Under the pieces are notes generated by a model that did no database searches, had not been told where the DNA came from, and saw nothing but the letters and a program-made list of their open reading frames with translations. From the NCBI GenBank assembly GCA_026874595.1, contig CM049306.1, positions 103,367,142 through 103,431,141 on the forward strand: 64,000 nt of DNA, in the 5' to 3' direction. Origin of the DNA: Sipunculus nudus (Eukaryota > Annelida > Sipuncula > Golfingiida > Sipunculidae). Within the stretch, counting starts at the first letter, position 1, and each line of letters begins with the position of its first letter. A program made the translations under genes and the position numbers. This document shows, one piece after another, positions 25,231 to 64,000 of this stretch.

Positions 25231-26404
25231 GGTTGTGGGTGATATCAAGTTAGCACCATCGCAGTCCTTCCACAGAATAGCATCTTGTAACCATAGGAAC
25301 AATCTCCATCAGATATGTCTCTGCACTATAGTACAGTATTTCTTTCTCTCTCATTAATTTAAGCATCAGACATAGCAGAAAAGGAGGACCATTTTATATA
25401 GATAATTTCAATCATATTTAATGAAGTGATCATCATGGTCATGACTACAGGTGTTGAAACACATTGTCCAGATAGCATGACAGAGATTAAAGGAAGTATC
25501 AAGACAGATAAAAGCATGAAGTCACTGATAACTTGGAACAACATTCCACAGGACACTGGGAAGAAGCAACGGTGATGGGCCTTTAAAATTGTGAATGATA
25601 GTTTGTATATTTATGCACAAGATGTGGAGATATGTTTACAAAGCTTTAATAGGTTATCCAAGGTAACTTAATCCTGTTCCAGAGCTTAATTAATACCTGA
25701 TTGAAAAGTCAAAGAATCATTTATAGATTTTGAAACGTAGAGTATCATGACTGGAGTTCTAAAGGGGCTGGACCATTGACTTTTTTTTAAAATAAATCCC
25801 AAGTTATTAAAGTCATACCTTAAGCTAAGGGACGTTAGGGCTTTTTTAAGTTCAAATTCTCTCTGCCTTAATTTCTTTGAATATCAAGTGTTAGCCAGCA
25901 AATGATATTATCAAACTAGAGAGTCCTTGATTATGAGATTAATCAATTTCTTTCATATGCTTGTTCTGTTTTCTATTCTTTCATTTACAATTTAGATTTC
26001 ACAAAAGCAAGTGTTAAGTGGTATGGTGCACATTATAATAAAGCCATGGGTTGATAAGGGGTTAATGGGGACAAGATCAAATGCCAGGTGAAACTTTCTG
26101 CTTCAAAACTGTGATGATACATGTATATATAAATTGTATTGTTTGTAAGATGGTAATGTAATAAAAATATATAATTTATAAGGCTTGTGTTATCTTGTCT
26201 GACCATGAAAAGTAGCTGGATTATGTGTTATGAGTGCTAAAACTAAATGGCTTTCCTCATGTTCAACAATATACAGTTCATGTCAGGATTGTACATTTTG
26301 AGACATGAATGGCTGGGCTTTGGCAGTTGAATCTGCAAGGGTTCTGATGAACAGTTTGAGCAAATTACTTCAAATTAGTTAAGTGTACAAGGTATGGGGG
26401 AACA
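25231..26404 (+). other. Intergenic AT-rich sequence, no gene seen
   Basis: No supported exon, RNA or repeat family was recognised between the 50-bp array and the 54-bp satellite. Open frames are short and without recognisable motifs. Confidence 0.6.
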
Positions 26405-34570: not shown

Positions 34571-34725
34571 CCCTGAGCCTGAATTTCAATGGAGACGGGA
34601 CCTGTCTGAGAGCTAAGTTAGAACTCTCCATGCCTAATGGTTATGATTATCAAGGTGATGATATCCAACCCGACGCCACCCTGATGCTCATCATGACTAA
34701 GTTGGTTGTGCTAAAGTATGTCTGA
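34571..34725 (+). other. Non-repetitive open tail continuing from the satellite frame
   Basis: The last satellite units (from 34414) stay in frame with a unique, polar and then hydrophobic tail of about 50 residues, DTLSLNFNGDGTCLRAKLEL and onward, ending at a stop at 34725. It could be chance or the remnant of a repeat-protein gene whose repeats expanded. No family is recognised. Confidence 0.25.
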
Positions 34726-40099: not shown

Positions 40100-43000
40100 C
40101 TATGAAGGTGTGGATGGCAGGTTGATGGGTCCTCGGGTATCATGCTGATGGACTGTGTCCAGGTGGATTTTGACGGTGGAAGCTCGTGTGAAATGTTTAT
40201 CACAGAGTGGACATCGGTAGTTCTTTTCCTTGGTGTGGGTCACCATGTGGGAGTCCAGGCTACACTTCTGCCCAAATGTACGGTTACATATTTTACACAC
40301 GAGGGGAAGCATGCCTCCATGGCAATACTTCCTTTGGTGATAATCGAGAACGTTCTTGCTGTTGAACTGACGGAAACAGTCCAGGCAGATATACCCCAGG
40401 GGTGTTTTACCATACACCTGCTGTCCCTTGTGCACAATTTCAGGTTTGAGACCTGGGTACATTCCAGGTGTCCACAGCTGCCCAAGAGAAGGAGTTCCAG
40501 GAGTAGCAGCAAACCCAGATCCAGGACTCCCTAACCCACCAAGAGGAGTCTGACTGGAGTCCATGCTTGTGGTTTTTGGAGTCACTGCAGTAGACTCATT
40601 CTCCGATGGTTCATCCTTCATTGGAGTTGCTGCACTGGGTTTTTGCTGTGCTTCACCCTGCGATTGATCCCCTGTCTGTCTGGATGGTGACCAGGCTGGC
40701 ATGGCCTGGGTACTGCTGCTGCCTTGTGACACTGCAGAGATGACACTTGGAAGACTTGGCAGAGGAAGTGTGATGTTTCCAACACTGGCTGGTGGTGAGA
40801 TCTGGGCTCCAAGACTTCTGTTGATTGGTAGGTTTCTGGACAGGCTTGAAAAGCTTGGCAGAACCTGACCCGAGGGCATGACACCAGGAAAGAAAGATGG
40901 GTACATCATCCCCAAGGAATGGTCTTGTGACTGTGTCGTTAAAAGATTTGGAAGCTCTCCATTCACACTGCTACTGCTGCTTGCCACTGAAGTAATTTTT
41001 TTGTCAGCAGATGGAGAAGTAACCACTGCTTGGCTGCTGCCACCATCAGGATCTGCAGCAGTCCCTTCTGCTGTTGTAAAGCATAAATCAGCACTGGTCT
41101 TTTTTATTTGCTGCTCTGCAACCAAGTGTGCTCTGACTGAAACTGCAGCTGCACTGCTATATAAAGTGTCAGATGTAAAAGTCTGGTTGGGAGAAACCTG
41201 CTGCGTGTCACCCCCTGGTGTAATGCCTTTATTTGATAATATGCTTTCATTTTTACTGTTTGTGCAAGCATTAAAATCCACTAATCGATGGGCTGCTGTG
41301 AGAGCATGCATGGGTGGGTATGTGAACTTTGGTTCTTGTTTAAAGGTGTCAACATTTTCTTGCTGCTTTAACAAATTACTAGGCCTGGTAGCAGCAATGA
41401 CAGACCCACTGTGAATGTCACTGTTCAGGCCAGAACTGATTTCAGCAGTAGCACTGTCTGTTTCTTTTGACATTTCAAGTTTCCCATCTCTGTTTGCTTG
41501 TAACAAGCCAGTCTGGTCTGGTTTAAGCGAGTTCTCTCCCTTACTAATCAGACAGTTTGTTTCAATGACAGATGCTCTTGGTCTGGTGAGAGGTGACACT
41601 TGCTTGTCATGACTTAATGTGTCACCTGACAAAGTTGGTAGGCCTTGAATTATTGAAGATGTAGAAGGAGGAATCCTCTCATGCCCAGGTCCTAGTTTAA
41701 ACCCATGGCTGCTTTCTTTACTATTTGCACTTTGATCAACTCGTGACTGATGAAGCAGCATTTGGTTCTGATGCTGGTTGTTCATCATGAGGTTCATCAA
41801 GTTGATACCCATGAGAGACGCCAGCCCTGGTAACAATAACTGCTGACTCATCGTTGCTACATTCACTGCTTGTAGGTACAATGAGCTTACACCAGCTCTC
41901 ACAGTTTCCTTAGTTACAGTTTCCTCTTCAGACAGTCCATCATCATGACAATCACCACCAACTACACCTGAAGGTGACAGATTTTTTGTTTCATCTTTTA
42001 CTGGGTTATTCTCTACATCACCTACAACACTGCTGTACTCATTATGACTGGGTGGCTGTCCATTAAGAGTTGCAGCCAAAGAAGGCAGTAAGGCCAGTAA
42101 CTGTGCATAAACCGTGTTTGCTTGTTGTATGACCTTATGTATGTGGGTAAGTGAATGCTGGGCTGCATCACCAGTTGTATTGTTTCTGTGTGACTGTCTT
42201 TCTGAGGAGTTTAATCCTGATGAATCACCAACACTTTTAACAGTGACACCAGTGGTAATATTTTCATCAATTTGATCCTTATTGGTACATGTATTAACAC
42301 TTTCACTGTGTGTAGGTGATAAATTAGGTGGCGATTCCTGTTGGTTGCTTGTAGAAACATCCATACTGTTAGCAACCACCGAGGAGACAGATGTATCTAT
42401 CCCACTTGGCAAGCTACTAACCATTTTACCAGCTTCATCAGTGTGGTCAGATTTAATATGACTGTTCTGTGCAAGACCTTGAGTTCCTACACCAGACCTC
42501 AGAAGGTCAGTTGGTTTCAGTGTATTACTGACACTTGAGAAAGGAAGGAGGCCCGGATGTTGAGGCATTCCCATACTTGTTGATGATGCAGGAACTCCAG
42601 TAAGTGATAGAGTAGGATCAATTCCCTGGCCAAAAGGTAATGCTGCACTAGATGCCTGTATAGGCAGTTGCTGTTTGGCTAGACTTGAGAGTACTGCCAG
42701 TTGATTAAGTCCAGGAACTCCTAAACTTGTGGATGATAATCCAGGACTATGTAGGTTCATCAAGGAGTTGGCTCCTGCCGTACCCATGAGGCCACCCATC
42801 CCTGGAGGCATGAAGGGCAACATTGAGTATGGCATGAGTCCCGGCAGCAACGGTGAAGCCAAACTGTTCCCTGCCATGCTTAGTGCCAGCTCTGACAGAA
42901 GTTGACTCTGACCTGCTTTTATGCTTTGTTTGGTGACTCGATGGAGAATTTTATGGCACAACCTGATATGGCGATTTAGGACATCGAGTCTTGAAAATTT

Positions 43001-45067
43001 CTTTGGACAGCCAGAGACTGGACACTGAATTTCTTCTGTGGCTCCATGGACAGCACTGTGTTTTTCTAAATGATCTCTTTGTGGAAATAACTGCCCACAC
43101 TCCTTGCACATAAATGGCTCAAGCCCCCCATGGTATTCCTTGCGCATGTGGTATGTTACCTTGTTGCGTAGATTACATACAAAGTTACAATCTGGACACT
43201 TGAACATCTTAACTACATGACCACTTTCCTTTTGATGGCGACTCAGTTCCAAGAAAGTCCTGAACACTATATGACAGGTGCCACAGACATGATGAAAATT
43301 GAATTTGCGGTAGGGCTTGTCAGTTTTTCTTGGCCTTTTATTCACTCTTTTGTTCAATATAGGGAAGGTACCATATCTCAAGGTACTGGGACTGGGAGTT
43401 GGCAGATGTTGCGCGTTTTGATTTGGGGTAACAAAATATTTTGACAAATCTGGCATTACACCACTCTGAGACCTTGAAACATTATCACTCATATCAGTAA
43501 CTTGGTCTCTGCTGTCTGACTGTTCTTGTGCAGCATCAGCACTGCTGGATGCAATCACACCACTGTTACCAGCCTCTGATGAATCATTTTTATCTTGATC
43601 ATTATCACCCAATTCATTCATATTTTCTTTCCTTTCCTCTGATTTATCCTTCCACATGTTCCATTTCATTTGATTAACATTTCCAAAATCTCCATCCATC
43701 TCTCGTTCATCATCTCCCTCCTCTTCATCATCATCATCTTCATCTTCATCCACTTGAAGCCCTTCTTGGTCTCCATCTTGGTCGTCATCTGTGGACATGT
43801 AGTCCTCCTCATCATCACTGTAGGGATAATCATCATAGAAGTCACAAGAACCACTGGTACTGTTCTGCCAGTTTTCACTATTAGTGACCCTTTTTGAGAG
43901 TGTATTGGGATCAGAACTATTTCCTTTACTCGATTCAGAATCCACAATGGATTCTTGGGCAGCTTCTTTTTGGCCTTCTGTCTGCTGCAAGTTTTGAGTG
44001 CTACCAGACGTTCCAGTTGGTATGTCACATGGCTGTCTATTGTGGCCTTGGAGTCTACTTGGACCCACACTGGTATGACTGATGACACTTTCAACAAACC
44101 TCTCATTCAGACTCTCCCTTGGTTTGATCTGATCATTAACTGTGATGATGTTTGATTTTCTAGTTTCTGTTGGTGAAATATTCTGCACTGGTTGACTGAT
44201 TGTCTCTGTTTTTTGTTGACCTATGTCTCTTGAGAATTGATGAATATTTTCAATTAGTTGTGAACTTGTAATTGGTCCAGGGACTTGCTGAGCAGACAGC
44301 ACTGTTGTCTCTACTTTTTGTTGTTCTCTCACTGCCCCTGACAGCAAATCTCTTGATAATTTCTGCAGGCTCTCATTTAGATGAGAACTTATACCTGGGT
44401 TGGAGACATGAACAGAACGAACATCAATTTCTGCTTTCTGTTCACCTTTGACCCTAACTGATGGTTGATCATTTGAGAAATGATGTCCAGACTGAATGGT
44501 TGTTACTGTTTCCTGATGACCTTTGACCCTACTTAACAGACTGTCTCTTGTGTAATGCTGAATGTTTTCATTCATATGTGAATTTGAAGCAGAGGCTGGT
44601 GTACTTTGTCCCCTTCCTAACAGTTGTTCACTGGCTGACTGAAACACACTTGTAGCACTCAATGCTGGTGCCATATTTGCAGTCTGTAAATTCACATGGC
44701 TTCCCAATGTCAGAGAGTCAATATAATGTCTGTTTGATTGTGATGTTAAATATCCAGGCACTACACTTTGGCTTACGGCATGAGGCAAAAAGCTGGTCCC
44801 CTCATGCATATTCATGAAGGGATACCTCACATGTTCTTGAATATTCATGCCGCCTGTATTCTGAACTGTGAGAGCACTTTCTTTGTTGCTTGTAACTGGG
44901 TTTGTAGGGCAGCTAGCTTGGTAGAGTGAACTTGTTGTGTGGACAAACAGCTCTGGGTTGTGGGGGTTGGCCGCTGTGCTGTAGCTGCCTGGTTTCTCCA
45001 TCCTCCCCATGCTGTAGCTGGACAGGTCCCCTGATCCACCGGAGAAGAAGTCTGGGGGAGCTGCCAT
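40100..45067 (-). CDS. Large C2H2 zinc-finger protein, seven fingers in two clusters
   Basis: A 1655-residue protein is encoded in one exon. Four C2H2 fingers sit near residues 593-704: C-x2-C-x12-H-x5-H, the same again, C-x2-C-x12-H-x3-H, and C-x4-C-x12-H-x4-H. Three more are near 1558-1640. The linker THTKEKNYRC between the last two resembles the TGEKPY linker. Residues about 405-465 form a very acidic stretch (DDDQDGDQEG, DEDEDDDDEEEGDDE). The rest is Ser/Thr/Gln-rich and probably disordered. The start at 45065-45067 is 13 bp inside a splice acceptor (TTTTTAG at 45081-45087 on the - strand), so a non-coding 5' exon is expected. The likely role is DNA binding and transcriptional regulation in the nucleus. 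I do not recognise a named orthologue. Confidence 0.93.
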   Translation of the reverse strand: MAAPPDFFSGGSGDLSSYSMGRMEKPGSYSTAANPHNPELFVHTTSSLYQASCPTNPVTSNKESALTVQNTGGMNIQEHVRYPFMNMHEGTSFLPHAVSQSVVPGYLTSQSNRHYIDSLTLGSHVNLQTANMAPALSATSVFQSASEQLLGRGQSTPASASNSHMNENIQHYTRDSLLSRVKGHQETVTTIQSGHHFSNDQPSVRVKGEQKAEIDVRSVHVSNPGISSHLNESLQKLSRDLLSGAVREQQKVETTVLSAQQVPGPITSSQLIENIHQFSRDIGQQKTETISQPVQNISPTETRKSNIITVNDQIKPRESLNERFVESVISHTSVGPSRLQGHNRQPCDIPTGTSGSTQNLQQTEGQKEAAQESIVDSESSKGNSSDPNTLSKRVTNSENWQNSTSGSCDFYDDYPYSDDEEDYMSTDDDQDGDQEGLQVDEDEDDDDEEEGDDEREMDGDFGNVNQMKWNMWKDKSEERKENMNELGDNDQDKNDSSEAGNSGVIASSSADAAQEQSDSRDQVTDMSDNVSRSQSGVMPDLSKYFVTPNQNAQHLPTPSPSTLRYGTFPILNKRVNKRPRKTDKPYRKFNFHHVCGTCHIVFRTFLELSRHQKESGHVVKMFKCPDCNFVCNLRNKVTYHMRKEYHGGLEPFMCKECGQLFPQRDHLEKHSAVHGATEEIQCPVSGCPKKFSRLDVLNRHIRLCHKILHRVTKQSIKAGQSQLLSELALSMAGNSLASPLLPGLMPYSMLPFMPPGMGGLMGTAGANSLMNLHSPGLSSTSLGVPGLNQLAVLSSLAKQQLPIQASSAALPFGQGIDPTLSLTGVPASSTSMGMPQHPGLLPFSSVSNTLKPTDLLRSGVGTQGLAQNSHIKSDHTDEAGKMVSSLPSGIDTSVSSVVANSMDVSTSNQQESPPNLSPTHSESVNTCTNKDQIDENITTGVTVKSVGDSSGLNSSERQSHRNNTTGDAAQHSLTHIHKVIQQANTVYAQLLALLPSLAATLNGQPPSHNEYSSVVGDVENNPVKDETKNLSPSGVVGGDCHDDGLSEEETVTKETVRAGVSSLYLQAVNVATMSQQLLLPGLASLMGINLMNLMMNNQHQNQMLLHQSRVDQSANSKESSHGFKLGPGHERIPPSTSSIIQGLPTLSGDTLSHDKQVSPLTRPRASVIETNCLISKGENSLKPDQTGLLQANRDGKLEMSKETDSATAEISSGLNSDIHSGSVIAATRPSNLLKQQENVDTFKQEPKFTYPPMHALTAAHRLVDFNACTNSKNESILSNKGITPGGDTQQVSPNQTFTSDTLYSSAAAVSVRAHLVAEQQIKKTSADLCFTTAEGTAADPDGGSSQAVVTSPSADKKITSVASSSSSVNGELPNLLTTQSQDHSLGMMYPSFFPGVMPSGQVLPSFSSLSRNLPINRSLGAQISPPASVGNITLPLPSLPSVISAVSQGSSSTQAMPAWSPSRQTGDQSQGEAQQKPSAATPMKDEPSENESTAVTPKTTSMDSSQTPLGGLGSPGSGFAATPGTPSLGQLWTPGMYPGLKPEIVHKGQQVYGKTPLGYICLDCFRQFNSKNVLDYHQRKYCHGGMLPLVCKICNRTFGQKCSLDSHMVTHTKEKNYRCPLCDKHFTRASTVKIHLDTVHQHDTRGPINLPSTPS

Positions 45068-46947
45068 ACTGTCCAGTCACCTAAAAACCACAAAGTTACA
45101 ATACTTTAAGATATGATTTTTCCATTATAACATAAGAAAAATATCTTCATACACATACACCATGCAGGGATTGTCCTAAGCCTAGAAGCCTTATTTCTGC
45201 ACCTTCCCTTCTGAAACGTTTGAGTTATTTTAATATTTACATAAAATTCCACCTTCACATTTTTGATGGTGCAAAAATACTCCTTCCCCGTTAAGGAAGA
45301 GGGCCAAGTCTTGAAAGACAGAATAACTCCTGAACATACATACACACACACAGCATGAAAGGCTAATGTTTGACCTAAAACAATATGATACAACAAATGC
45401 CTCCAAATCAGTTAAACAAATAAGAAAAAAAGTAGCAAAATGAGGCGGCTGCTGTATATGATTATGAGTGACAACACATTTAGACTTCTGATGTTTCCTA
45501 TCCTTGATGGGCTGGTCAAAGAGATGTATTTTAAAATTTTGTTCTACTTATTAATGGGATCCATTCCTGTCAGGAGTCATTACTAAGTAGGGTTGGCACA
45601 ATCTTCCTGGAGGGAAAGGAAGGTTTTCTTCCCACAATTTCTTCCCAGGTAAGAACTTCAATCACAACATACAGGTCAATTTTATTTTTTAAATGACATT
45701 TTTGCCTGTTGTATCAGTACAAATCAAAAGGACTGATTTCACAACCTTTATTATGTAAAGGGCATCCAAACAACCCTTCTGGGTATCAGAATAAAATTAC
45801 TTGAGCATGACTTGGACTGCAAGTCTCACTGTGGGGTTTTTCTTAAGTTGAATAATTACTTAGTATGAATTCATCTCAAGTTCACACAGTCTGCTGGAGT
45901 GAATGTGGTTTGTACAGCTTGTATAGTCTTTAGCTAAGAAAGAAAAGATCACATCAACTAGACTAGTTGTGTACACTCACTCAAATATATCTATTATCAG
46001 GGGATATGTTTTGGTTTTTTTTAGGGGGGGGGGGGGGGGTTATTGATCAACTGGAAATTATTCAGGGCTAGAACTGTCAGATAACAGGGGTTCCCTTTAA
46101 TTATTTTCTTGGCAAGCATGCTCTTCTCATTTGTACAAAAGCCAAGTCAAAGTCCAATACAGAAGCCCTATAGACAGATTTCTATTTTTTTAACTGAAAA
46201 AAAGTAGACATGTTGAATGCCAGATGATCAGCCTTGATTGGCAGCTGTCTCAGGATCTCTTAACACCTATAGGTAAAAACTGCATCATATGGAAATTTGA
46301 TAATCTTTGTTAAAATTGTCCTGTTTAATTTTATTTCTAAATAAACAAGATCTGGTTTCATATTTTAATGGGTTACATACTTGGAAAATACAGATGCCTT
46401 TTATTGAGGCATTGGTGCTGACTCTTGGTGACTCCAGTGGACATCAATTTAAACATAAACAATTAGGGTTTTCTAAAACTCTTTGGTTTACAAAATATTT
46501 TTGTTGAACTCTATTTGACACAATTATGCAATAATACACCCTGGATATATACCACAGAGGACCATTTATCAACTGTTTTTTTAAATAGTTTCTTTTTATA
46601 GGAAGTTATATGTGCGTTTTGTCACAGGAACCATCCACAAAACACTGGTGTTTCAGGCATTTAGGTGGATCTGTGTTAGTTAAACTCAAACAGATTGTTG
46701 TACCGTACTCTTTGTAGCTCTGTCCCACATTTGCATTATAAGAAATTAAGAGTAAACTAAAGCCCTGTAAAAGTGAGACACAGACAAGGTTTTCATGAAC
46801 AATTCTTATGTTAATGCTAGCCTAAAAAAGTTGTCCAGGTCAGAATATTGATCAGAAAGTTATTATTAATACAAACAAAATGACAGGTAACAAACACAAT
46901 AGGGTCTAAAGCACTACTGGTCTGGTTGGCAGTGTGTTCTGGTTGGC

Positions 46948-49203
46948 AGTACTGCCTACCACTGTACCAGACCACCACATGTGATGTTTATGGTCACCCT
47001 CTATGCATCAGTGCAGAGCCAGCCACGCCATACCATCATATTAGATGAATAGCTGTATGAACAGATTAACAGATGTTCAATGTTTTAACAGCTTCCTTGA
47101 TAGACTGGTAACACCCTAAAGCTGTCAGTATATGAGCGGTATCGACTGCATTTTTTATTAATTTATATTCTTTATCTCTGATATGAATTCCTATAATATT
47201 TGTATTATTTCTGATTTTACCTGCTAATATTTCTGATGCTAAAATGAATAAATATGGTGACAAGGGGCAACCTTGTCTTACTTCTTGAGAAAATGTGACA
47301 TACTCAGTAGCCCAACCTCTATTCATGACACAACTTCTGATGTTAGTGTAAAGAATCTTAAACCATTTTTTAAGAATTCTCAAAAATTGTAGATACTAAG
47401 AGTATTCTGAATGTGGGACCATTCTGACAAATCAAAAGCTTTTTCAAAATTAATTGGTATAAAGCAGTTATTTATTTTATGTTTTCTGGCATATGCAAAT
47501 ATATCTGTAATTTTCATATTTTCCCTGATGTATCTGTTTTTATAATGAATCCTGATTGGTCTTAATTTATAATATGAGGTAATATTGTCTATAGTCTATT
47601 TTACAAGTTTTTTGCAGTTATTTTATAATCTGTATTCAACATTGAAAGAGGGCTCCAATTTTTTAAAAGTGAGTGATATAAGCCTTTATACCACAGATCT
47701 AAACAGTGACAAATATTCCTAACAATAACCTAATAAGATGTTATTTAACATATCATTAATAATGCTACAATATATTAAGTAGAATAATAACTGTAGTGAT
47801 GGTATATACCACAGACAATTAAATTCAAACAACCTTGAATGATCACTCCGTGAAGTTAATTCCCTTTGATCTCTTCAGAAGCTTTAATGAGTTTCATGTG
47901 ATGTAAGACAAATTAATCTTTCGTGAGTTGATTGTCTGAGTGGGAATGTGTTATGACAGTACATGAAATCAGGGCTGGTTCTGCCTATTCGCCCCTTGAA
48001 TGGCTAGCAATGGAGAGATCTGGCAAAAACAAAATCCTCTCTGGCTAATTTACTGGCGAGAACTATCTTTCAAATGCCCTTGGGCCTAAATAATATTCAT
48101 ATTTATTTTGTAATGATATAATCAATTCATGATATTTTGAATTCTGCTCAGTGCTAAATATGGATATTTCGCATTTTTCAGAGAATAAGTACTGGCTTAA
48201 ATGTTTCTGAAATGGCTAAAGAAAATTCCTTTTGGCTAAAATTGTGGCTAAAGATTTTTGGAAGTAGGGCAAGCCCTGTGAAAGATTGTTGTTGCTGTAC
48301 ATAAAATTGAAGATATTCATTCATTATTATATCCTTTGGTGTAGGATAAACAACCTTATAATCACCTATATAAGCCCCCCCCCCCCCCCAGATTCCAGGT
48401 AAGTTCACTATACCCAGTTTAGGTTTTCTGGATACTTAGATATTTATCTGTTTGAGTATCACAAATATTGGTTATTCCCTTTCAATAATTCTTATTAACA
48501 ACACTAGTATATTTATATTGCTACACTAATATATATATTTATTGGATAACACCATTTAAATGTATTTAATCTTCCACACAACAGTAATTAAATAAAATGT
48601 TAAATGTTACACTGAATTTGTGATTTTATACAAATTATATTTATGGTTATGATTTATATTAAATATTTGACTACCTGGTTATTGTTATTCTATTGATTAA
48701 TTGGTTTTGTATGTGTATTCCTATGTACTGTCACAACATACTCCCATTCTGACAACCAACACATCAAAGATTACTCACACACAAGGTTAATAATGTGTGT
48801 GTTAAGTTAATTGGCTATGGAATATGTACACCATCACTACAGATATTATTCTACTTCCTCAATACTTGTTATTATTTTGCTAATAAATTAATTATTTCTT
48901 ACTTTTGGTTTACTTTTATCAATTTTAATATAGTTAATTTTATCGACTTTGGATCAGTGGTATGAACACTGATTTCAGATTAAAAAAAAGATACAGCTTG
49001 GTATATATGATCAATTGCAACACTACTATATGGTACTATATGGTAGTGGTACACAGATTAAATATGCCTCCATTTGTTTATATAGCTATTCATCAAACTA
49101 GAAGGTATGGTGTGGCTGACTGTGCACTGATGCATAGAGGGTGACCAATGTACTAACAGCTATACATCACATATAGACTTATAGTGGTCTGGTTGGCAGT
49201 ACT
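46948..49203. mobile_element. Inverted-repeat (foldback-like) element
   Basis: The outer arms 46948-47063 and 49075-49203 are reverse complements with moderate divergence, sharing GGTCACCCTCTATGCATCAG and GATGAATAGCT. Inner arms 47755-47815 and 48823-48870 also match (GTAGAATAATA-CTGTAGTGATGG). The left arm is split by the LINE fragment at 47066-47720, which suggests a nested insertion. No transposase is seen. Confidence 0.55.
47066..47720 (-). pseudogene. LINE reverse transcriptase fragment (L1/Tx1-like)
   Basis: Reading the - strand gives, in order, NWSPLSMLNTDYKI, INFEKAFDLSEWSHIQNTL, ILYTNIRSCVMNRGWATEY and RQGCPLSPYLFILASEILA. At the expected catalytic YADD box the sequence reads NAVDTAHILT. 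The segment order is that of the fingers-palm of a non-LTR reverse transcriptase. Internal stops and the lost catalytic aspartate box show it is dead. Confidence 0.85.
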
Positions 49204-49753: not shown

Positions 49754-52700
49754 AGGATGATTCCAGCTTTGATAGCCCGGCCTGGTTGTTTGATTTACAG
49801 AACGAAGCTAATATCAAACTGCCTTGCTGGGAGAAACCGGTGAATAGTGTCAGTGACAAAGGAGTATTTTCTGTAGGCAAGTTCAACATCTGGCAATTTT
49901 TATACAGATTAGTAAACAATGCTTGAAACAAGGAAACTTGTGTTCCTTCCTTTTCTTTGAATAAAAAAAAATCAAAAGAGATGAACCTAAACCTGTGGTC
50001 TACTTGTATTAATTAAAAGATACATCAATTTTGCATATTAAACTAACTGAATGATAGTCATTATTTTTAATGATTTAAAATTTGTTCTATTATAATGATA
50101 TATAACACAAGCATATGATATAACTTATAAGATATCCTATCATTTAGTGCAAATGACATATTTACATATTTTTATAAGTCATATCTTTTGCAAATTAGTA
50201 TTTGGTTGCACAGAAAAAAACAAATGAGTACACTTGTAATGTAATATATCATATAATATGGGTATGAAAAATATAAAATATGAAAACAAATGTAATATAA
50301 CAAGTATTTTTTACCTTATTAGATGATGTAAGGATACTGACCATAATATTTATCAAATTAATTCTATGGCACATTGATTATTTGTAGTTATTTGTAACAG
50401 GTTAGATAGATAGATATATTTTATTCACAACAACAAACACATACAGATCACAATAAAATGGATAAATATAAAATATACATATATCTATCAAAATTATATT
50501 CATAAAATCTGCAAGTGTTAAAAGCCATGAAAAAGGAGCACTAAAAAGTAACCTTACGTTTGTGAGGTATACTTATTTCCATAGTGGACCTTGAAACACA
50601 TTTAACAAGATGGCAGACCATGCATACAATTTAGATAATTTATCATATTAGTTGATTTCAGAATGCTGACTGAGACTATCGAACATGGAAACACTTATTC
50701 ATGTACATATGTCAGTCAGTTACATATATGTAAAACTATTGACTACAGTATTTTAAAAATTACAGTGATAATAATAGTTACATGTATTGTTTAAAACGAC
50801 TGAGTGTTCATAAAAAAGTGACTAAGACATTCATGTAACTGTGAGTTACATCTATTAAATACTGTGACTAAGAGATTCAAGGATAAAAAGTGACCATGAT
50901 TAATAATTATGTAATAAAAATTCCCTTTTCCAGTTCCTTCATTTTCCTAAATAAGTAGTCTTTGCAGTTCATCATAAATAATCTCTTACTGTTTGAAGTT
51001 TTAATACTAGATGGCAATTCATTCCATAATTTTATTCCATTAAATTTAAAACTATATTTACCCTGAGTTTTGACTTGAGGTACAACATAAGCTTGATTAC
51101 TTCTTCGTGTGTTATAACAATGTCTAACAGGTTCCATATCACTAAGGTATGCCGGAGCATGATGAACATGAGTATTATACATTAGACCCAGTGTTAAATA
51201 TTCAACCCTATGTGAAACATCCAACCATTTCAGCTTTTTAAAGTCACTTACTCTTAGGCTTTGTCTATTTGAATAATTTCTGACAAAACGTACCATTTTA
51301 TTTTGAGCAGTCTGAAGCCTAGTCTTCAGTTTTTTATGAAGTCCCCGGTACCAAGTGTTACAAGCATAATCAAAAATTCCCTGTAGTAGTGAAGAGCATA
51401 ACAATTTTCTTTCCCTGAAATTCAAATTTGCATGTTTCCTGTACAGAAATTTTATTCTAGCAAAATAATAGGCAAAACCAGTGGTTTACTTTACTTTGGC
51501 TTACAGCACATTTTCACATACAGAATTTCTACTTGTTTGTCACAGGGCTCACCATACAGGACAGTGTGGTATGTGAACCTGAAGGAAAGCAGGACCAGCT
51601 GGTGATATTATTATTCAGTTTATTAAGAAAGGAAGATGGTTTCTGGCTGAATCCAAACCCTGACCTTCCCTGTCTGGTGAATGATGACGATGTGAAGAAC
51701 ACAGTGCTGCTGAGCAAAGGTAATATGGAGTAGGTCTGTGGTGTATGTAACAATTATACATGTCATATAGAATGGGATCTTGTTAATGGAATGAGAGAGA
51801 AAGAGAGAAAGAGGGAGAAAGAGATATTAAGGGGTCCATTCTGATATCTGACATCTATTAACTTAAGTTAGTTGTTTTGCTTACATCCATATGTTTATTA
51901 TATAAGGGGCCTGCTAAAATAATCCAAACACATTCAACAAGCCTCTGCCAAAATAATTGAGACACTTTCAACTAGCCTCTGCCAAAATAATCCAAACACT
52001 TCAACACGGACATCTGACAACAAGATGAACCAGAATTTTGAAGAGGGAGGCTTTGCAACTTGTGATCTTTAACTTCCTCACATATGCAACAAGTTAAGCT
52101 TACATTACCGGTACATGGTTTTTCAGTCTGTCAATATTGCTTTAGTTTACTTTTTGTAGGTATATAAATAAGCTCATACTTCCGTCTCAGATGTGTTATA
52201 GGAATTACTTATCTGTCAGGAAGTTCACTTGGAGGTATTTTATTAATCATTCTCAAAAGTACATGTATTTTACTGTTGGTCACAGTACAACATGAATGTG
52301 TAATTCTGCAGGATCCACTATCAAGGCTGGAGATCGGTTTATCAGGTTTCATCAGAGGGGGACCAGTCTCAAGAGACTGGGTGTACCAGGGCTCTCAGCC
52401 AATAGGGAGCCTCCTCCTAAACCAAAGAGATCCAATCACAAGCAAGTGTCCTTAAAACAACCTGAGGAAGAGGTAGAGAAATGCAAATAAATATTTGATA
52501 TAATCCAGGAGTTTATAGGAGTATATATCATCTCCTTGATATACTTAGCTTTGTTGTTTACAAAAGCCTTATGGAAAGCCTTACTGTTTGAAGTTTTTCA
52601 AGAATTATTATATAGATGTAATGAATATGTCTGCATTCATAAATGTTACATTCTTGTCTTTAGTATGAATAACATATATTATGGAAATTTAAAAAAAAAA

Positions 52701-55700: not shown

Positions 55701-58700
55701 ATATCTGTGAAATAATAGTCTGCATATTTACAAATGATATCTTTATTTTACTATTTCTGTACACTAGGCATGTTTTGATTACATGCGAGGACTACAATTC
55801 TTTTATTGAAATGAAAGATAAGAAGTATGAGGACAAAATGGAGGCACCGGTAACACCCATGTTACTCATTAAATGTTGATCCAGATGTGATGTGATTGCA
55901 GGGTCCTGTACGTGAGAGTGGTGTGGAGCTCATTGTCAAAGCCATGAAGACTCACAGTCAGGACTTGTCTGTGCTGAGACCAGCATGCAGAGCACTGGCT
56001 AATCTGACTACTGTGACTACCAGTACACTTCAAGATATTATCAATGGAGGTAGCTCAGTACTAAAGCTGGCTTGTTTCTCAGTTACCACACAGGGAATAC
56101 TTATAATATCAGGGTGTTTATAATGTAGATGCTATTCAAATTGTTAAAAAGGAGCATTTGCATTGATATAAATATTTGTTATGAAGTGTGTGTTTAAGCC
56201 AATATCTAGCATAATAAATATCTATTCTTCAAGTAGCTAAATTTTATTTAGTCAGAGCTAGATTTTTAAAAAGAAAAATATGTCATCTTTCGATGCTTCA
56301 CTTTGAGCATGTGTTTTAGATTAAAAGAAAGTTTAAAACTATATATTTTTTTCCATTTACAGAAGTGACAAAAGAACCTGAACACACAGAGAGGAATTTA
56401 GGTATCCTTGAGTTTTTACATACTCATGCTGTAGAAGTTGTCATGGAGACACTGAGGAGCTATAGTGATGATGTCACATTATATTGTGAGTGCAGACGTA
56501 TCCTGAATTTTTTCAAAGGTGACATATCAGGGTATGTATATGCATAAAGCTGACTGATTCACCTTATACCTTGTTTCCATCCTCATTCTACCAAGTCTGT
56601 GGCAGCTTTTCACAGACCTGATATCTATTTCATGAAAAATGAACAAGCCTGCAAGTGTTCTGGCCAAAATCAAAACTGTCAGTCAGAACCAATGAACAAT
56701 ATTTATAAAACAATACACTGTTCAAATGCTATCTGAACAAGAACATGAGTGCACAAAAAATGGGACATGTTTAAATATCTTTATTTGATTGGTCAAAATC
56801 TTGATGCTCTCCCTTCAGTGCTAAATGCCTGTGTAGAACTAGCACCCGAAGTGCTCTGGTAGCTGTGTAAAACAAGTTTACGTGGGTCATTTTATTGGTT
56901 CAATTGTGTTTTTTTATTCATTGAATAGATGCCAGAGTTGATCTGGTAGCTGTGTAAAACAATTTTATGGGAGTCATTTTATTGGTTCAATTGCGTTGTT
57001 TTTTATTCATCAAATAGATGCCAGAGTTGCTCGCTGAATCAAGGTCTATGAAAAGTGGAGCTGCTATAGACTTGGTAGTATGAAGATGCCTCTTTCCTTT
57101 TTATTAAATCTATCTTTTAATGTATAATAAAAAATAATGTTTAAGAAAGTTGAGATCTAATTGTATCTGCCAAAACAAAGTTGTGCAAGTACTATGTTTT
57201 TAACCAGGTTCCACCGCAGCCATGTTCATTTCTCGCAAACTCCTCTGAGACCATTGGACCAATTTATCCAAAATATGACCCCATTATCAGGTCACATGTG
57301 AACTGGTGCCTTACCATTTTGCATTGACCTTTGACCTTTCCTCTCCGCAGTGCATCAATCTGTGCATCTGTTTTCACACATCAACCTACATATTTTCGCA
57401 CTCGTTTGACCAAATGGGCTGAAAATTTGGATGTGTATAGATCTCACATAGCTCATTATCATAGGCAAACTTGTAGCACAACCTGCAACCAATTTTGCAC
57501 AGCATCCTTCTGTTTGTCTGCTGTGAGATAAAACCACTCATATCTCGGCAATGGTTTGAATTATCTGCCTAAAATTTTGCATATGTATACATCTTGAATA
57601 GCTTTCTTGATTTTGTGACAGTTGGTGCCACCTATATTCACTTGTACATGTCAGACATCCATGGTAATATCTCAAGACTGGCTTGACATATCGGCCTGAC
57701 ATTTTGCATGAGTATAGATCTTTCCTAGCTCTACAACTTATACAAATTCAGTGGCCCAACTTACAACCATTTTTGTATGGTGTCCATCTGTTCATCTGCC
57801 TAGGGTGAAAATCAATCATATCTCAGCAGTGGTTTGACTTATCCACCTGAAATCTTGCATATGTATACATCTTGGATAGTTTTCTTTTTCAAATATCAGG
57901 TGTCACCACCTACAGTCATGTTTAAGTGGCAAACATCCATGCTAATATGCAACACATCTCACTCTGATCCTTGCCACTCAATCCATGTCTCACTTCTTCC
58001 ATCCCACTCTGATTATGGTGGATACATGTAGTCGCTTGTCAGCTACCAGTATTCTAGTTTATAATAGTAAATTACCTCTGCTATTATTAATGATACCATA
58101 TTTAAGACCACCTTACTTTGATAAAGAATAACTTCAACTGAGTATTATTTTGTATTTTTATGTTTCAGAAAAGAAAATAAAAGAAGTATTTCTCAGAGGA
58201 TTTCATTTAATGGAAGTAAGCTTGAACCAGAGAAATCAGAACATGATACACTGACCCAGTCAGTGATGATGCCACAAGGTGGTGCCACTGTCACTAAAAA
58301 TCAAACAACTAATTGTGAATATGTCGAACCTACAGGAGTGAATGAAAGTGATCCAGAACATAGCATTGCATCAAATGACACACATGAACCTTTTCTGTTC
58401 ACAGATGATGTGGTATTAAATCAGACAATATGTGATGAAAAGATAAATAACAAACAAGAAGAAACTCCAGAGGTTGACACATCAGTATACATATCAGACC
58501 ATGACCCTGCTAAGAAATCTCATATCAGGCATTCAGTTGATTTTAGCAGGAATTCAGTCACTGATCAAAAACAAGCTGAGAAGCAGCTAACAGAGAAGGA
58601 TTATGTTGGAGATGAGACAGGCAGATTAACTATGCTAGAAAAAGTAGACATGTTTGATGATGAGCCTAGTCCTTGTGATAATTATGGCAGTGGTGAGAAA

Positions 58701-60301
58701 AAAGACCTTGCCAGATCTGTAACCATAGTTACAGAACATGACTGCATTAGGAGGATTACCAGCAAATCAAATTGTGCAGCCCCAGAAGAAACAAATTCAA
58801 GCTTCCATGATAGACTCAGTAAGAAAAGTCTAGATCAGTCAGAAAAAATAGATTTAGAGTTGAATGTAGAATCTACTGCCAAAACTGAATTATCTGTTGT
58901 TACCAGTTGTGACAAAACTTCAAATTCTAGTCCAAAGGTTAAACTTCAAGGCAACAAAGGTGATCACAAGTTGCTGGACAGAGACCATGAATGTGTTGAA
59001 GAACTCATTGTAGATACAAGTGATGATAGTTTTGGTCATCGTCATTTTAGCCCTGAGAAAGTGAATATTAACAGAAAACAGTGGGGTTCTGTCTACAGTC
59101 CTGAGGGTAATGATATCCTAACAACCTCACAGCAAAGTCTGTCCCTGCAAGATTCAATGGATTATGCTGTCATGAGGTCATGTGACATGAACAGCTCCAT
59201 AGTGAGTGATTTTTGTCCAGAAACAGAAGAAGAGATCAGGATGAACAGGATGATGTGGAAATCTGTTGTGAAAGAACTTAAACTTAAGCAAAGCTTCACA
59301 CCAGATGATTCAAAAGAATTTGTGCAGATTGTTGATGATGTTCATAATGGTTCTGGAGTATCTGTAACAAACCATGTAGAAAAAATTCAAACTTTAACCA
59401 CAAATGAGCAGGGACATAATACTTTAGTGGTGCACAGTGCTGCATTTTCTAGAGATGTGAATGATGGTTCTGAAGTTGAAGAAAAGAAAGGTGAGAGTAC
59501 TGTAACAGAAGATGAGGATGTCCCTGAAGGAGAGGTGAACATTCTGGCAGATCTTCTTCTGGACAGCAACTCTGTTCAGAAACATCTGGAAACCAGGTCA
59601 AAGGTAAGAGCAACTTCTTTCAATTGCACAGAAGCACCTGGAAACCAGTGCAAACAAACCTCTGTCATTGTTTATGAATCAGCTCAAGTTTGTTTCATAA
59701 TCATTGCCATTGAATGGTGGAAGTGGTTTTATATTATCTGGGCAGGCAAAGGAAAGGTTAATGCTGAGGTAAACCCACCCAACAGAGACAGCTTATTATA
59801 AAACCATGAGAATTCAGGTGTGGACAGGCTGGTATATTCTTAAGGTCTGTATTTATCTGTAATATATTTCAATATCTATATGAGCTGTTTCTTATTAGTG
59901 ATGATTGTAAACAGTTTACATCTATTTAATTTTGTTTTGCAGGATTTATTTTTGATTAAATGTTAATTTATTTGTATAAAAATACATGAATCATATGATT
60001 TAGCCTTACTCAGGGATGTCGCTAGTTAAGTAACTTGGGAACTGGAGAGGAAAGGATATGTAAAAAGCACAAAGGTATCAGTATCTTTCCAGTTGCTCCA
60101 GTACCTGTGCAATGCTTGCTATGATGAGGGGAGGATACAGTGTATAGAAACCCTGAAGGTGCCCCTGCCAAGCGCCATGATACAGGCAGGTGTTCCCAAG
60201 GAAACAGCTCAGTACATGAAGAAGTTGTACCCTGGATACATCACCTTGGCTGATGCTGACCCTGCTCTAGCACTCAATGTTTTGGAAACTCTCTCAGACA
60301 G
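49750..60301 (+). CDS. Unrecognised protein with armadillo/HEAT-like helical region, 3' incomplete
   Basis: Ten phase-consistent exons: 49750-49872, 51524-51719, 52312-52472, 53311-53514, 54277-54438, 55037-55243, 55902-56049, 56363-56531, 58169-59603, 60093-60301. They give about 1004 residues, and the last exon ends in phase 2, so the gene continues right. Exons 4-8 are rich in leucine helices spaced like armadillo/HEAT repeats (for example LRPACRALANLTTV and LWLRLLYTFSHYTPNVEVFL). Exon 9 encodes about 478 acidic, Ser/Thr-rich, probably disordered residues. Exon 10 is helical again (LLQYLCNACYDEGRIQCIE). The first exon fit is less certain. It uses a weak GTAGGC donor and the acceptor CATACAG at 51517-51523, the only pairing I found that keeps frame. 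The same donor hexamer is used after exon 4. I do not recognise the family. It could be a scaffold-type protein, and no function is assigned. Confidence 0.75.
50402..51490 (-). pseudogene. 5'-truncated non-LTR retrotransposon (CR1/L2-like) 3' end
   Basis: On the - strand, about 51475-50907 encodes the C-terminal tail common to many CR1/L2-type ORF2 proteins: FLYRKHANLNF, LLQGIFDYACNTWY, LKTRLQTAQNKMVRFV, HYNTRRSNQ-like (HCYNTRRSNQAY) and GIKLWNELPSSIK. A 3' UTR follows, ending in ATATATCTATCTATCTAACC at about 50402. The short tetranucleotide tail is typical of such LINEs. The reverse transcriptase core is absent, so the copy is 5'-truncated. It lies in intron 1 of the armadillo-like gene. Confidence 0.85.
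51908..52003 (+). repeat. Tandem repeat of about 36 bp, three units
   Basis: Three units of the form GCCTCTGCCAAAATAATCCAA plus CACTTCAAC, in intron 2. Confidence 0.75.
53004..53060 (+). repeat. (ATT)n microsatellite
   Basis: ATT/TTA trinucleotide runs, with a second such stretch at about 53257-53300, lie immediately upstream of exon 4. Confidence 0.9.
53707..53890. repeat. Small inverted-repeat element
   Basis: Arms 53707-53737 and 53860-53890 are reverse complements over 31 bp with a few mismatches (CATGTGAC-ACAAGTGG). Together with the roughly 120-bp spacer they form a foldback of about 184 bp in intron 4. Confidence 0.7.
54118..54244 (+). repeat. 65-bp tandem duplication with acceptor-like motif
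   Basis: Two copies of a segment with TATAATTTCTTACAG and TTTAAAGCTGTTTGCATC lie just before exon 5. Each carries a TTTCTTACAG that resembles a 3' splice site. Confidence 0.85.
55337..55495 (+). repeat. 79-bp tandem duplication
   Basis: Two copies share TTATTGAGGTTGCAAATGTA and CTACTTTATCATGAACCAC, in intron 6. Confidence 0.9.
56850..57025 (+). repeat. 87-bp tandem duplication
   Basis: Two copies of CTGGTAGCTGTGTAAAACAA, TCATTTTATTGGTTCAATTG and ATAGATGCCAGAGTTG, in intron 8. Confidence 0.9.
57200..58040 (+). repeat. Interspersed repeat shared with COG5 introns
   Basis: It starts near ACCAGGTTCCACCGCAGCCATG, has monomers with TTTTGCATATGTATA-ATCTTGGATAG, and ends with the segment also seen at 5825-5945. 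It occupies the end of intron 8, stopping about 130 bp before exon 9. Confidence 0.6.
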
Positions 60302-63300
60302 GTAAATATAGAGAATGTCACTGCTCTAACACTCATTGTCCTAGAAGCTCTTTCAGATAGGTAAATATAAAGACTGTACCCACTCTAGCACTCATTGTCC
60401 TGGAAGCTCTTTCAGACAGGTAAATATAGAGACTGACCCTGCCTTAGTACTTAACATCCTGGAAGTACTCTCAGATATGTAAATAAAGAGACTGACCCTT
60501 CTTTAGTACTTAACATCATGGAAGTAATCTCAGATATGTAAATATAGAGACTGACCCTGCTTTAGTACTCAACATCCTGGAAGAACTCTCGGATATGTAA
60601 ATATAGAGACTGACCCTGCTTTAGTACTTAACATCCTGGAAGTACTCTCAGATATGTAAATATAGAGACTGACCCTGCTTTAGTACTTAACATCCTGGAA
60701 GTACTCTCAGATATGTAAATATAGAGACTGACCCTTCTTTAGTACTTAACATCATGGAAGTACTCTCAGATGTGTAAATATAGAGACTGACCCTGCTTTA
60801 GTACTTTACATCATGGAAGTAATCTCAGATATGTAAATATAGAGACTGACCCTGCTTTAGTACTTAACATCCTGGATGTACTCTCAGATGTGTAAATATA
60901 GAGACTGACCCTGCTTTAGTACTTAACATCATGGAAGTACTCTCAGATATGTAAATATAGAGACTGACCCTGCTTTACTGCTTAACATCCTGGAAGTACT
61001 CTCAGATATGTAAATATAGAGACTGACCCTGCTTTAGTACTTAACATCCTGGAAGTAATCTCAGATATGTAATTATAGAGACTGACCCTGCTTTAGTACT
61101 TAACATCCTGGAAGTTATCTCAGATATGTAATTATAGAGACTGACCCTGCTTTAGTACTTAACATCCTGGAAGTAATCTCAGATATGAAAATATAGAGAC
61201 TGACCTTGCTTTAGTACTTAACATCCTGGAAGTAATCTCAGATATGTAAATATAGAGACTGACCCTGCTTTAGTACTTAACATCCTGGAAGTACTCTAAG
61301 ATATGTAAATATAGAGACTGACCCTGCCTTAGTACTAAACATCCTGGAAGTAATCTCAGATATGTAAATATAGAGACTGACCCTGCTTTAGTACTTAACA
61401 TCCTGGAAGTACTCTCCGATATGTAAATATAGAGACTGACCCTGCTTTAGTACTTAACATCCTGGAAGTACTCTAAGATATGTAAATATAGAGACTGACC
61501 CTGCCTTAGTACTAAACATCCTGGAAGTAATCTCAGATATGTAAATATAGAGACTGACCCTGCTTTAGTACTTAACATCCTGGAAGTACTCTCCGATATG
61601 TAAATATAGAGACTGACCCTGCTTTAGTACTAAACATCCTGGAAGTACTCTCAGATATGTAAATATAGAGACTGACCCTGCTTTAGTAATTAACATCCTG
61701 GAAGTACTCTCAGATATGCAAATATGGAGACTGACCCTGCCTTAGTACTTAACATCCTGGAAGTACTCTCAGATATGTAAATATAGAGACTGACCCTGCT
61801 TTAGTACTTAACATCCTGGAAGTACTCTCAGATATGTAAATATAGAGACTGACCCTGCTTTAGTACTTAACATCCTGGAAGTACTCTCAGGTATGTAAAT
61901 GTAGAGACTGACCCTGCCTTAGTACTTAACATCCTGGAAGTACTCTCAGATATATAAATATAGAGACTGACCCTGCTTTAGTACTTAAAATCCTGGAAGT
62001 ACTCTCAGGTATGTAAATATAGAGACTGACCCTGCTTTAGTTCTTAACATCCTGGAAGTACTCTCAGATATGTAAATATAGAGACTGACCCTGCTTTAGT
62101 ACTTAACATCCTGGAAGTACTCTCAGGTATGTAAATATAGAGACTGACCCTGCTTTAGTACTTAACATCCTGGAAGTACTCTGAGATATGTAAATATAGA
62201 GACTGACCCTGCTTTAGTACTTAACATCCAGGAAGTACTCTCAGGTATGTAAATATAGAGACTGACCCTGCCTTAGTACTTAACATCCTGGAAGTACTCT
62301 CAGGTATGTAAATATAGAGACTGACCCTGCCTTAGTACTAAACATCCTGGAAGTACTCTCAGATATGTAAATATAGAGACTGACCCTGCCTTAGTACTTA
62401 ACATCCTGGAAGCACTCTCAGGTATGTAAATATAGAGACTGACCCTGCCTTAGTACTAAACATCCTGGAAGTACTCTCAGATATGTTAATATAGAGACTG
62501 ACCCTGCTTAAGTACTTAACATCCTGGAAGTACTCTCAGATATGTAAATATAGAGACTGACCCTGCCTAAGTACTAAACATCCTGGAAGTACTCTCAGAT
62601 ATGTAAATATAGAGACTGACCCTGCTTTAGTACTTAAAATCCTGGAAGTACTCTCAGATATGTAAATATAGAGACTGACCCTGCCTTAGTACTTAACATC
62701 CTGGAAGTACTCTCAGGTATGTTAATATAGAGACTGACCCTGCCTTAGTACTAAACATCCTGGAAGTACTCTCAGATATGTAAATAAAGAGACTGACCCT
62801 GCTTTAGTACTTAACATCCTGGAAGTACTCTCAGGTATGCAAATATAGATCGACCCTGCCTTAGTACTAAACATCCTTGAAGTACTCTCAGATATATAAA
62901 TATAGAGACTGACCCTGGTTAAGTACTTAACATCCTGGAAGTACTCTCAGATATGTAAATATAGAGACTGACCCTGCCTTAGTACTAAACATCCTGGAAG
63001 TACTCTCAGATATGTAAATATAGAGACTGACCCTGCCTTAGTACTAAACATCCTGGAAGTACTCTCAGATATGTAAATATAGAGACTGACCCTGCCTTAG
63101 TACTAAACATCCTGGAAGTACTCTCAGATATGTAAATATAGAGACTGACCCTGCTTTAGTACTTAACATCCTGGAAGTACTCTCAGGTATGTAAATATAG
63201 AGACTGACCCTGCCTTAGTACTAAACATCCTGGAAGTACTCTCAGATATGTAAATATAGAGACTGACCCTGCTTTAGTACTTAACATCCTGGAAGTACTC

Positions 63301-64000
63301 TCAGGTATGTAAATATAGAGACTGACCCTGCTTTAGTTCTTTACATCCTGGAAGTACTCTCATATATGTAAATATAGAGACTGACCCTGCTTTAGTACTT
63401 AACATCCTGGAAGTACTCTCAGGTATGTAAATATAGAGACTGACCCTGCTTTTGTACTTAACATCCTGGAAGTACTCTGAGATATGTAAATATAGAGACT
63501 GACCCTGCTTTAGTACTTAACATCCAGGAAGTACTCTCAGGTATGTAAATATAGAGACTGACCCTGCCTTAGTACTTAACATCCTGGAAGTACTCTCAGG
63601 TATGTAAATATAGAGACTGACCCTGCCTTAGTACTAAACATCCTGGAAGTACTCTCAGATATGTAAATATAGAGACTGACCCTGCCTTAGTACTTAACAT
63701 CCTGGAAGTACTCTCAGGTATGTAAATATAGAGACTGACCCTGCCTTAGTACTAAACATCCTGGAAGTACTCTCAGATATGTTAATATAGAGACTGACCC
63801 TGCTTAAGTACTTAACATCCTGGAAGTACTCTCAGATATGTAAATATAGAGACTGACCCTGCCTAAGTACTAAACATCCTGGAAGTACTCTCAGATATGT
63901 AAATATAGAGACTGACCCTGCTTAAGTACTTAAAATCCTGGAAGTACTCTCAGATATGAAAATATAGAGACTGACCCTGCCTTAGTACTTAACATCCTGG
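60302..64000 (+). repeat. 59-bp minisatellite derived from an exon end and its splice donor
   Basis: The unit reads GACTGACCCTGCTTTAGTAC, TTAACATCCTGGAAGTACTC, TCAGATATGTAAATATAGA. About 62 copies run to the window edge. The ancestor is visible in place: the exon 3' end (GACCCTGCTCTAGCACTCAA ... CTCTCAGACAG) followed by the donor GTAAATATAGAGA. The first two copies after the exon still read like the exon and keep CAG-or-TAG|GTAAAT, while later copies have ATATGTAAAT. Since 59 is not a multiple of 3, no frame opens. Confidence 0.95.

What the first reader, a model, noticed from the sequence alone, without database searches (positions are those of the whole stretch)
60093..64000. Minisatellite born from a splice donor: exon 3' end plus intron start amplified about 62 times
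The unit is a recognisable copy of the last 40-odd coding bases of an exon followed by its GTAAATATAGA donor. A gradient is visible: the copies closest to the exon keep exon-like sequence and a plausible donor, while later copies carry ATATGTAAAT. The exon is thus followed by dozens of decoy 5' splice sites. This could give alternative exon ends, U1 titration or length-dependent splicing.
Basis: partly seen in the sequence, partly recalled or inferred. Interest (0 to 1): 0.8.

Follow-up and report, generated by a model that had tools for sequence, protein, structure and literature searches.

The report
Minisatellite copied from a splice junction
The last 46 bases of a predicted exon and the first 13 of its intron have been copied head to tail into an 83-unit array inside that intron, a large example of a known kind of repeat (a mirage minisatellite) in which most copies no longer carry a good splice signal.

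Summary
Exon 60093-60301 is the third-last exon of an armadillo-repeat gene model (splice sites and phases agree; no RNA data). From 60256 its last 46 nt plus 13 intron nt form unit 1 of an 83-unit, 59-bp array that runs 1,155 nt past the window and fills about 4.84 of 4.99 kb of the intron. The genome search found this locus only.

Corrections: the pattern is a step, not a gradient. Units 2-3 and, at the far end, 78-83 are diverged, exon-like copies; units 4-77 are a homogenised subfamily of donor-weak type (TAT|GTAAAT). 26 of 82 downstream units hold a strong U1 match; 18 of these are new CAG|GTAT sites. Any downstream donor would include an in-frame TAA at 60303-60305. A near-identical 22-unit block pair points to recent turnover. 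GATGCT lies exactly one period apart across the ancestral junction, suggesting microhomology-mediated duplication.

This is a known kind: 'mirage' minisatellites of amphioxus; functionally close is the human IFI6 minisatellite with multiple donors. The unit number, the setting (probably not amphioxus) and the donor-weak core are the new points. Use of decoys is untested; a mostly silent intronic minisatellite is the best reading.

The parts
58125..59603 (+). Open frame that holds upstream exon A; only its 3' end (59603, AAG|GTAAGA) was placed, its start was not
   Evidence: stop-to-stop frame; donor end; 1,479 nt to the donor, so phase 0
60093..60301 (+). Exon B, 209 nt, phase 0 in and phase 2 out; its last 46 nt (60256-60301) are the exonic part of unit 1
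   Evidence: joins in frame to exon C (L005:1293-1444) and exon D (L005:1738-1877, TGA); 166 aa without a stop; no RNA evidence
60302..60314 (+). Presumed used donor CAG|GTAAAT and the 13-nt intron part of unit 1; in-frame TAA at 60303-60305
60252..60257 (+). GATGCT; the second copy is at L005:1152-1157, 9 nt after the donor of unit 83. Within one unit the spacing is 59, the period
   Evidence: a run of 6 or more across a fixed boundary at +59 occurs at 0.26% of 51,510 control positions
60315..60432 (+). Units 2-3: exon-like edge copies with donors at 60361 (TAG|GTAAAT) and 60420 (CAG|GTAAAT, same 9-mer as the exon donor)
60433..61848 (+). Units 4-27: homogenised interior copies with no site of 17 or more U1 hydrogen bonds
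61849..64000 (+). Units 28-64 (64 cut by the window end; interior type runs on to unit 77): TAT|GTAAAT copies mixed with 15 units bearing CAG|GTAT in this stretch, 18 of 74 in the whole interior; two near-identical 22-unit blocks (units 26-47 and 48-69)

Best explanation
It is a 'mirage'-type minisatellite. A tandem duplication of the exon B/intron junction, probably between two GATGCT copies 59 bp apart (inferred), gave a short array of copies with live donors, now seen as the diverged edge units (shown as sequence; the order of events is inferred). A copy in which CAG before GT had become TAT was then amplified by slippage or unequal exchange to about 74 units (inferred from the homogenised interior); at least one 22-unit block was duplicated recently, if the assembly is right. 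The intron is normally removed from the donor at 60302 to exon C with the array inside it (inferred from the open frame). Occasional use of a downstream copy, most likely unit 3 at 60420, would keep the TAA at 60303-60305 and give a truncated or decayed transcript (the stop is shown; use and decay are inferred). The main effect is thus a length-variable, mostly silent intron with at most a small load of mis-splicing.
For: Unit = last 46 nt of exon + 13 nt of intron, in register over 83 units. Only locus found. Homogenised core and excluded edges: in a tree of 22 of the 83 units the exon copy and all eight edge copies separate from the 13 interior units chosen with support 0.99. Block 26-47 v 48-69: 18 differences, against 64, 82, 76 and 64 at offsets 20, 21, 23, 24. 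GATGCT one period apart. Only donor 60302 keeps the frame into exon C. 56 of 82 downstream units lack a strong donor, and units 4-27 all lack one. Amphioxus mirages are reported to leave regular splicing intact (PMC3087553 section 16; PMC3902484, one passage).
Against: 26 strong U1 matches lie downstream of the donor, far above first-order Markov sequences of the same composition (mean 3.8, at most 10 in 500 runs), and unit 3 has the same 9-mer as the real donor, so silence is not assured. In human IFI6 downstream repeat units are used as donors (PMC4526556, passage). No RNA, orthologue or population data were available.
Confidence: 0.78

Rival explanations
1. Functional decoy array: downstream copies are used often enough to lower or tune expression, because the extended exon carries a stop and the transcript decays; copy number would set the rate.
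For: 26 of 82 downstream units with strong U1 matches and an immediate in-frame stop. IFI6 precedent.
Against: Only two strong decoys lie within 1.5 kb of the exon (units 2, 3; the next is at 61891). All decoys pair less well in duplex energy than the donors of exons A and C. The amplified core is donor-weak. Mirages of amphioxus reportedly do not disturb splicing.
Confidence: 0.1
2. Ratchet or dual-specific array: the CTCTCAG|GTATGT copies serve as both acceptor and donor, so the intron is removed in steps (recursive splicing).
For: 18 of 74 interior units have CAG|GTAT at a single site that was absent from the founder type. 27 AGGT motifs in the downstream array; their upstream pyrimidine count is typically 9 of 16, equal to the acceptor of exon B. 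Dual-specific sites are enriched in human tandem-repeat genes (PMC10809524).
Against: Acceptors of exons C and D have 13 of 16, and 97 of 235 AGGT elsewhere in the window and L005 (54-bp array left out) have 9 or more, so the copies are not special. The change is one substitution that may have spread by block duplication.
Confidence: 0.05
3. Opposite direction: the array was in the intron first and the exon was extended into its first unit, so the last 46 nt of the exon are the derived part.
For: No orthologue was available to fix the direction.
Against: Unit-like sequence stops inside exon B, and the 13 nt before unit 1 do not resemble the intron part. The native frame is open in all 7 exon-like or consensus copies compared and changes lean to synonymous there (13 of 31, null 9.5, P 0.09; other frames 7 of 32), weak support for a coding ancestor.
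Confidence: 0.07
4. The copy number is in part an assembly fault (false duplication of the 22-unit block or collapse of a longer array).
For: Near-identical blocks of 1.3 kb are hard to assemble; no reads were available.
Against: The blocks differ at 18 aligned positions, including a 2-nt deletion in unit 44, and the whole array lies in one 110.9-Mb contig. The junction origin does not depend on the exact number.
Confidence: 0.1

Closest known systems
'Mirage' minisatellites of amphioxus (Adh3, globin BflGb6 and BflGb9, TnC, PGBD5)
   Same: Tandem repeats that span an exon-intron boundary; many but not all copies keep AG/GT; homogenised core with excluded edges (PMC3087553, abstract passage and section 16; PMC3902484, one passage).
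   Different: 83 units here, against 6 and 3 in the two BflGb6 haplotypes; unit counts at Adh3 were not seen. A donor-weak subfamily makes up the core. Probably a different phylum (weak evidence).
Human IFI6 (6-16/G1P3) minisatellite with multiple splice donors
   Same: Repeat units downstream of an exon end carry donor sites (PMC4526556, passage, and title of Turri 1995 in its reference list).
   Different: There downstream units are used and give three mRNA species; here use is untested and would bring in a stop. The primary paper is not held.
UBC polyubiquitin array of dual-specific AGGT sites
   Same: AGGT motifs in a tandem array (PMC10809524, abstract and second half of Results).
   Different: UBC units are coding, 228 nt and removed or kept in frame; here the units are intronic, 59 nt, and the intron (4,991 nt) is not a multiple of the unit.
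Intron gain or change by tandem duplication across a splice boundary
   Same: Duplication of a segment that holds a splice boundary supplies new splice-site copies (PMC4974935, abstract; PMC2812944, passages).
   Different: Here no new intron need have formed; an existing intron is enlarged.

Membership tests
mirage minisatellite | tandem repeat whose unit spans an exon-intron boundary | tested here: met
   unit = 46 nt exon end + 13 nt intron, 83 units; the exon itself rests on a gene model without RNA
mirage minisatellite | many but not all copies keep the AG/GT signal | tested here: met
   27 AGGT motifs in the 82 downstream units; 26 of 82 units with a strong donor-like site
mirage minisatellite | homogenised core, edges excluded from homogenisation | tested here: met
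   (tree on 22 of 83 units)
mirage minisatellite | length instability between haplotypes or tissues | not testable with these tools
   one assembly only; the recent 22-unit block pair is indirect support
mirage minisatellite | regular splicing not disturbed | not testable with these tools
   no RNA data
IFI6-type multiple-donor minisatellite | downstream repeat units are used as splice donors | not testable with these tools
   no RNA data; candidate donors listed
[quoted passage not shown]
   4,991 nt = 84 x 59 + 35
recursive splicing (ratchet points) | strong acceptor joined to donor at AG|GT | tested here: inconclusive
   donor half good (CAG|GTATGT, 20 of 22 hydrogen bonds); pyrimidine count 9 of 16, not special
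genome-wide satellite | many loci | tested here: not met
   38 matches, all in this array; the tool warns that absence is not proof

The most novel reading that the evidence does not exclude
Growth of the array was gated by loss of the donor: a live-donor mirage stayed short, a donor-weak copy was free to expand to dozens of units, and AG|GTATGT sites that later arose and spread inside it now act as stepwise (recursive or dual-specific) splice points that help remove the long repeat intron.
Probability: 0.05. Interest if true: 0.75.

Novelty: new member of a known kind. Interest (0 to 1): 0.36.

Why it matters
It is a mirage-type junction array of 83 units in what is probably not a cephalochordate. 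Donor-weak and donor-like copies lie side by side at known distances from one real donor, so it is a natural test of how the spliceosome ignores decoy donors and of whether such arrays can grow only after their founder has lost its donor. Many units carry their own variants, so decoy use could often be assigned to a copy in RNA reads.

Tried and rejected
Satellite origin: rejected, one locus found. New protein tails from downstream donors: rejected, TAA at 60303-60305. U1 titration: set aside on abundance grounds, not computed. Structured RNA: Rfam gives no match at gathering score in window 56000-64000 (the part of the array in L005 was not scanned), and 60270-60470 folds no better than shuffles (z 1.78, 196 of 200 shuffles fold at least as well; only this stretch was folded). 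Purifying selection on the copies: comparison with the exon looked strong (26 synonymous codon changes, 12.7 expected, 0 of 4,000 runs; 24 non-synonymous, 34.6 expected) but counts the exon's own changes up to seven times; against a majority ancestor without the exon it is 13 of 31, null 9.5, P 0.09, other frames 7 of 32: inconclusive. Units 78 and 80 (indels) were left out of both tests and the 74 interior units stood as one consensus. Paralogues: the 166-aa tail hits only its own three exons up to E 10. Family of the 169-aa tail query: none in Pfam up to E 1 or the PDB up to E 10. Organism: a myosin exon's top 8 PDB rows are, as I recall the entries (the table names no species), squid and scallop, but the next is only 0.7 bits below the eighth; weak (best 60 of 145 shown). 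Earthworm metallothionein minisatellites (PMC12783039, five passages): intronic, not shown to span a boundary. Literature: 8 searches answered (86 rows listed in all); I saw no paper on this locus or on mirages in molluscs among the listed rows; only open-licence papers are held and not all hits were listed.

Full report
WHAT WAS CHECKED. The window is bases 103,367,142-103,431,141 of contig C1 (110.9 Mb) of a 1.43-Gb genome in 153 contigs. TRF reports 60256-64000 as one 59-bp array with 93% matches. I took the next 9,859 bases as L005 and cut the array into 83 units: 79 of 59 nt, two of 61, one of 60 and one of 57 (the last four were placed by hand-chosen anchors after the automatic cutter stopped at unit 79). 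It ends at L005:1155, that is 65155 in extended window numbering.

THE EXON IS VERY LIKELY REAL. It starts in the phase in which exon A ends (59603, AAG|GTAAGA; frame) and joins in phase 2 to exon C (L005:1293-1444) and in phase 1 to exon D (L005:1738-1877, ending in TGA), giving 166 residues with no stop. Upstream open-frame pieces, joined by me with guessed edges, match the Armadillo repeat family (PF00514, E 5e-5, 23.6 bits, cut-off 20.6). The 169-aa tail query has no Pfam or PDB match, and the genome search found only its own three exons. No RNA or orthologue was available, so the exon is a strong model rather than an observed exon.

THE UNIT IS THE SPLICE JUNCTION. Each unit is the last 46 nt of exon B plus 13 nt of intron (GTAAATATAGAGA in unit 1). 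The 78 downstream units of exactly 59 nt share 42-52 of 59 positions with the exon copy; the best elsewhere in window 1-60255 is 31, and 200 shuffled exon copies reach at most 30 against the array. The last unit runs without a break into the rest of the intron. The genome search found 38 matches, all in this array. The 82 downstream units take up 4,841 nt of a 4,991-nt intron.

A STEP, NOT A GRADIENT. Units 2 and 3 resemble the exon copy (47 and 50 of 59) more than the interior consensus (43 and 44); unit 4 is already interior type (57 to the interior, 45 to the exon). At the far end units 78-83 are again exon-like, with CAG|GT donors. A tree of 22 of the 83 units separates the exon copy and all eight edge copies from the 13 interior units chosen (support 0.99). 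Units 4-77 are about 94% alike on average (alignment columns, shared gaps counted as matches). This is the usual picture of a homogenised interior with excluded edges.

HISTORY. The 22-unit blocks 26-47 and 48-69 differ at 18 aligned positions over 22 x 59, against 64, 82, 76 and 64 at offsets 20, 21, 23 and 24, so a 1.3-kb block was duplicated recently, or mis-assembled. GATGCT occurs in exon B at 60252, 50 nt before the donor, and again 9 nt after the donor of the last unit; within one unit that spacing is exactly 59. A run of 6 across a fixed boundary at that spacing occurs at 0.26% of 51,510 control positions. I infer that the first duplication used this microhomology; most present units read GAGACT there, so two later changes must be assumed. 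The amplified subfamily carries TAT before GT in place of CAG, so its founder had a weakened donor. That is one event and cannot be tested statistically.

SPLICE SIGNALS. Scoring in-register pairing with U1 (5' end recalled; perfect score 22), the exon donor scores 19, TAT|GTAAAT 14 and CAG|GTATGT 20. In duplex energy CAG|GTATGT (-7.8) is slightly weaker than the exon donor (-8.3), and both are weaker than the donors of exons A and C (-9.5, -9.9), which score only 17 on the bond count; the threshold of 17 was taken for that reason. Downstream, 26 of 82 units hold a site of 17 or more: units 2 and 3, eighteen interior units with CAG|GTAT (15 GTATGT, 2 GTATGC, 1 GTATTT) and units 78-83. First-order Markov sequences of the array's composition average 3.8 (at most 10 in 500 runs), and 11 bins of 5 kb in the window hold 1-9 on the plus strand except one with 19 that overlaps the 54-bp array. 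Units 4-27 hold none, so near the exon only two decoys compete. The in-frame codon after exon B is TAA, so every downstream donor would include a stop ahead of two further junctions; by the usual rule (general knowledge) this predicts decay or a protein that ends LSDR.

TESTS THAT DID NOT DECIDE. Coding constraint on the copies is weak at best. The recursive-splicing reading has the AG|GTATGT motif, but its upstream pyrimidine count (typically 9 of 16) equals that of exon B's acceptor, falls below those of exons C and D (13), and is reached by 97 of 235 AGGT sites elsewhere.

WHAT IS KNOWN. Tandem repeats that span exon-intron boundaries were named mirages in amphioxus; they are reported as unstable in length, keep AG/GT in many copies, show homogenised cores with excluded edges, and reportedly leave regular splicing intact (PMC3087553, abstract passage and section 16; PMC3902484, one passage). 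The primary Adh3 paper is not held. In human IFI6, two downstream repeat units act as donors (PMC4526556, passages; primary paper not held; PMC2572611 seen only in its reference list). Dual-specific sites in tandem-repeat genes: PMC10809524 (abstract and second half of Results). Repeats at exon-intron boundaries linked to new introns: PMC2812944 (passages). Tandem duplication over a boundary and intron gain: PMC4974935 (abstract). The array meets the three structural features of a mirage that I could test; two others (length instability, undisturbed splicing) could not be tested. It fails the unit-multiple feature of UBC-type introns.

VERDICT. A real, large junction-derived minisatellite of a known kind, most likely silent for the protein. 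The new points, as far as my searches reach, are its unit number, its setting in what is probably a mollusc (weak evidence), the donor-weak amplified core and the later gain of CAG|GTAT sites. Whether any decoy is used is open and easily tested.

Noticed in passing
window 26407-34573: A second large minisatellite, about 150 units of 54 bp (18 codons, period 54), with plus-strand open frames of 199-485 aa of the type GITGLQDPVSNTQVPTNQ broken by stops or frameshifts, and AGGT twice in the consensus unit. The genome search found it only here (76 matches). Coding or not is unresolved.
   Followed up: partly
L005:799-1037 (units 78-81): The far edge keeps an older two-unit periodicity: units 78 and 80 share an insertion and cluster together (support 0.91).
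   Followed up: partly
window 40100-45076, minus strand: A 1,658-aa open frame without introns that by eye holds C2H2-type zinc-finger motifs; not searched against families.
   Followed up: no
window 47066-47595 and 50907-51485, minus strand: Open frames that by eye look like pieces of reverse-transcriptase-type elements; not searched.
   Followed up: no
window 60433, 62734 and L005 unit 65: Three units (4, 43, 65) read AAATAAAG and so contain AATAAA, a possible cryptic polyadenylation signal inside the intron.
   Followed up: no
window 24981-25234: A five-copy 50-bp tandem repeat with 99% matches, which suggests a very young array.
   Followed up: no
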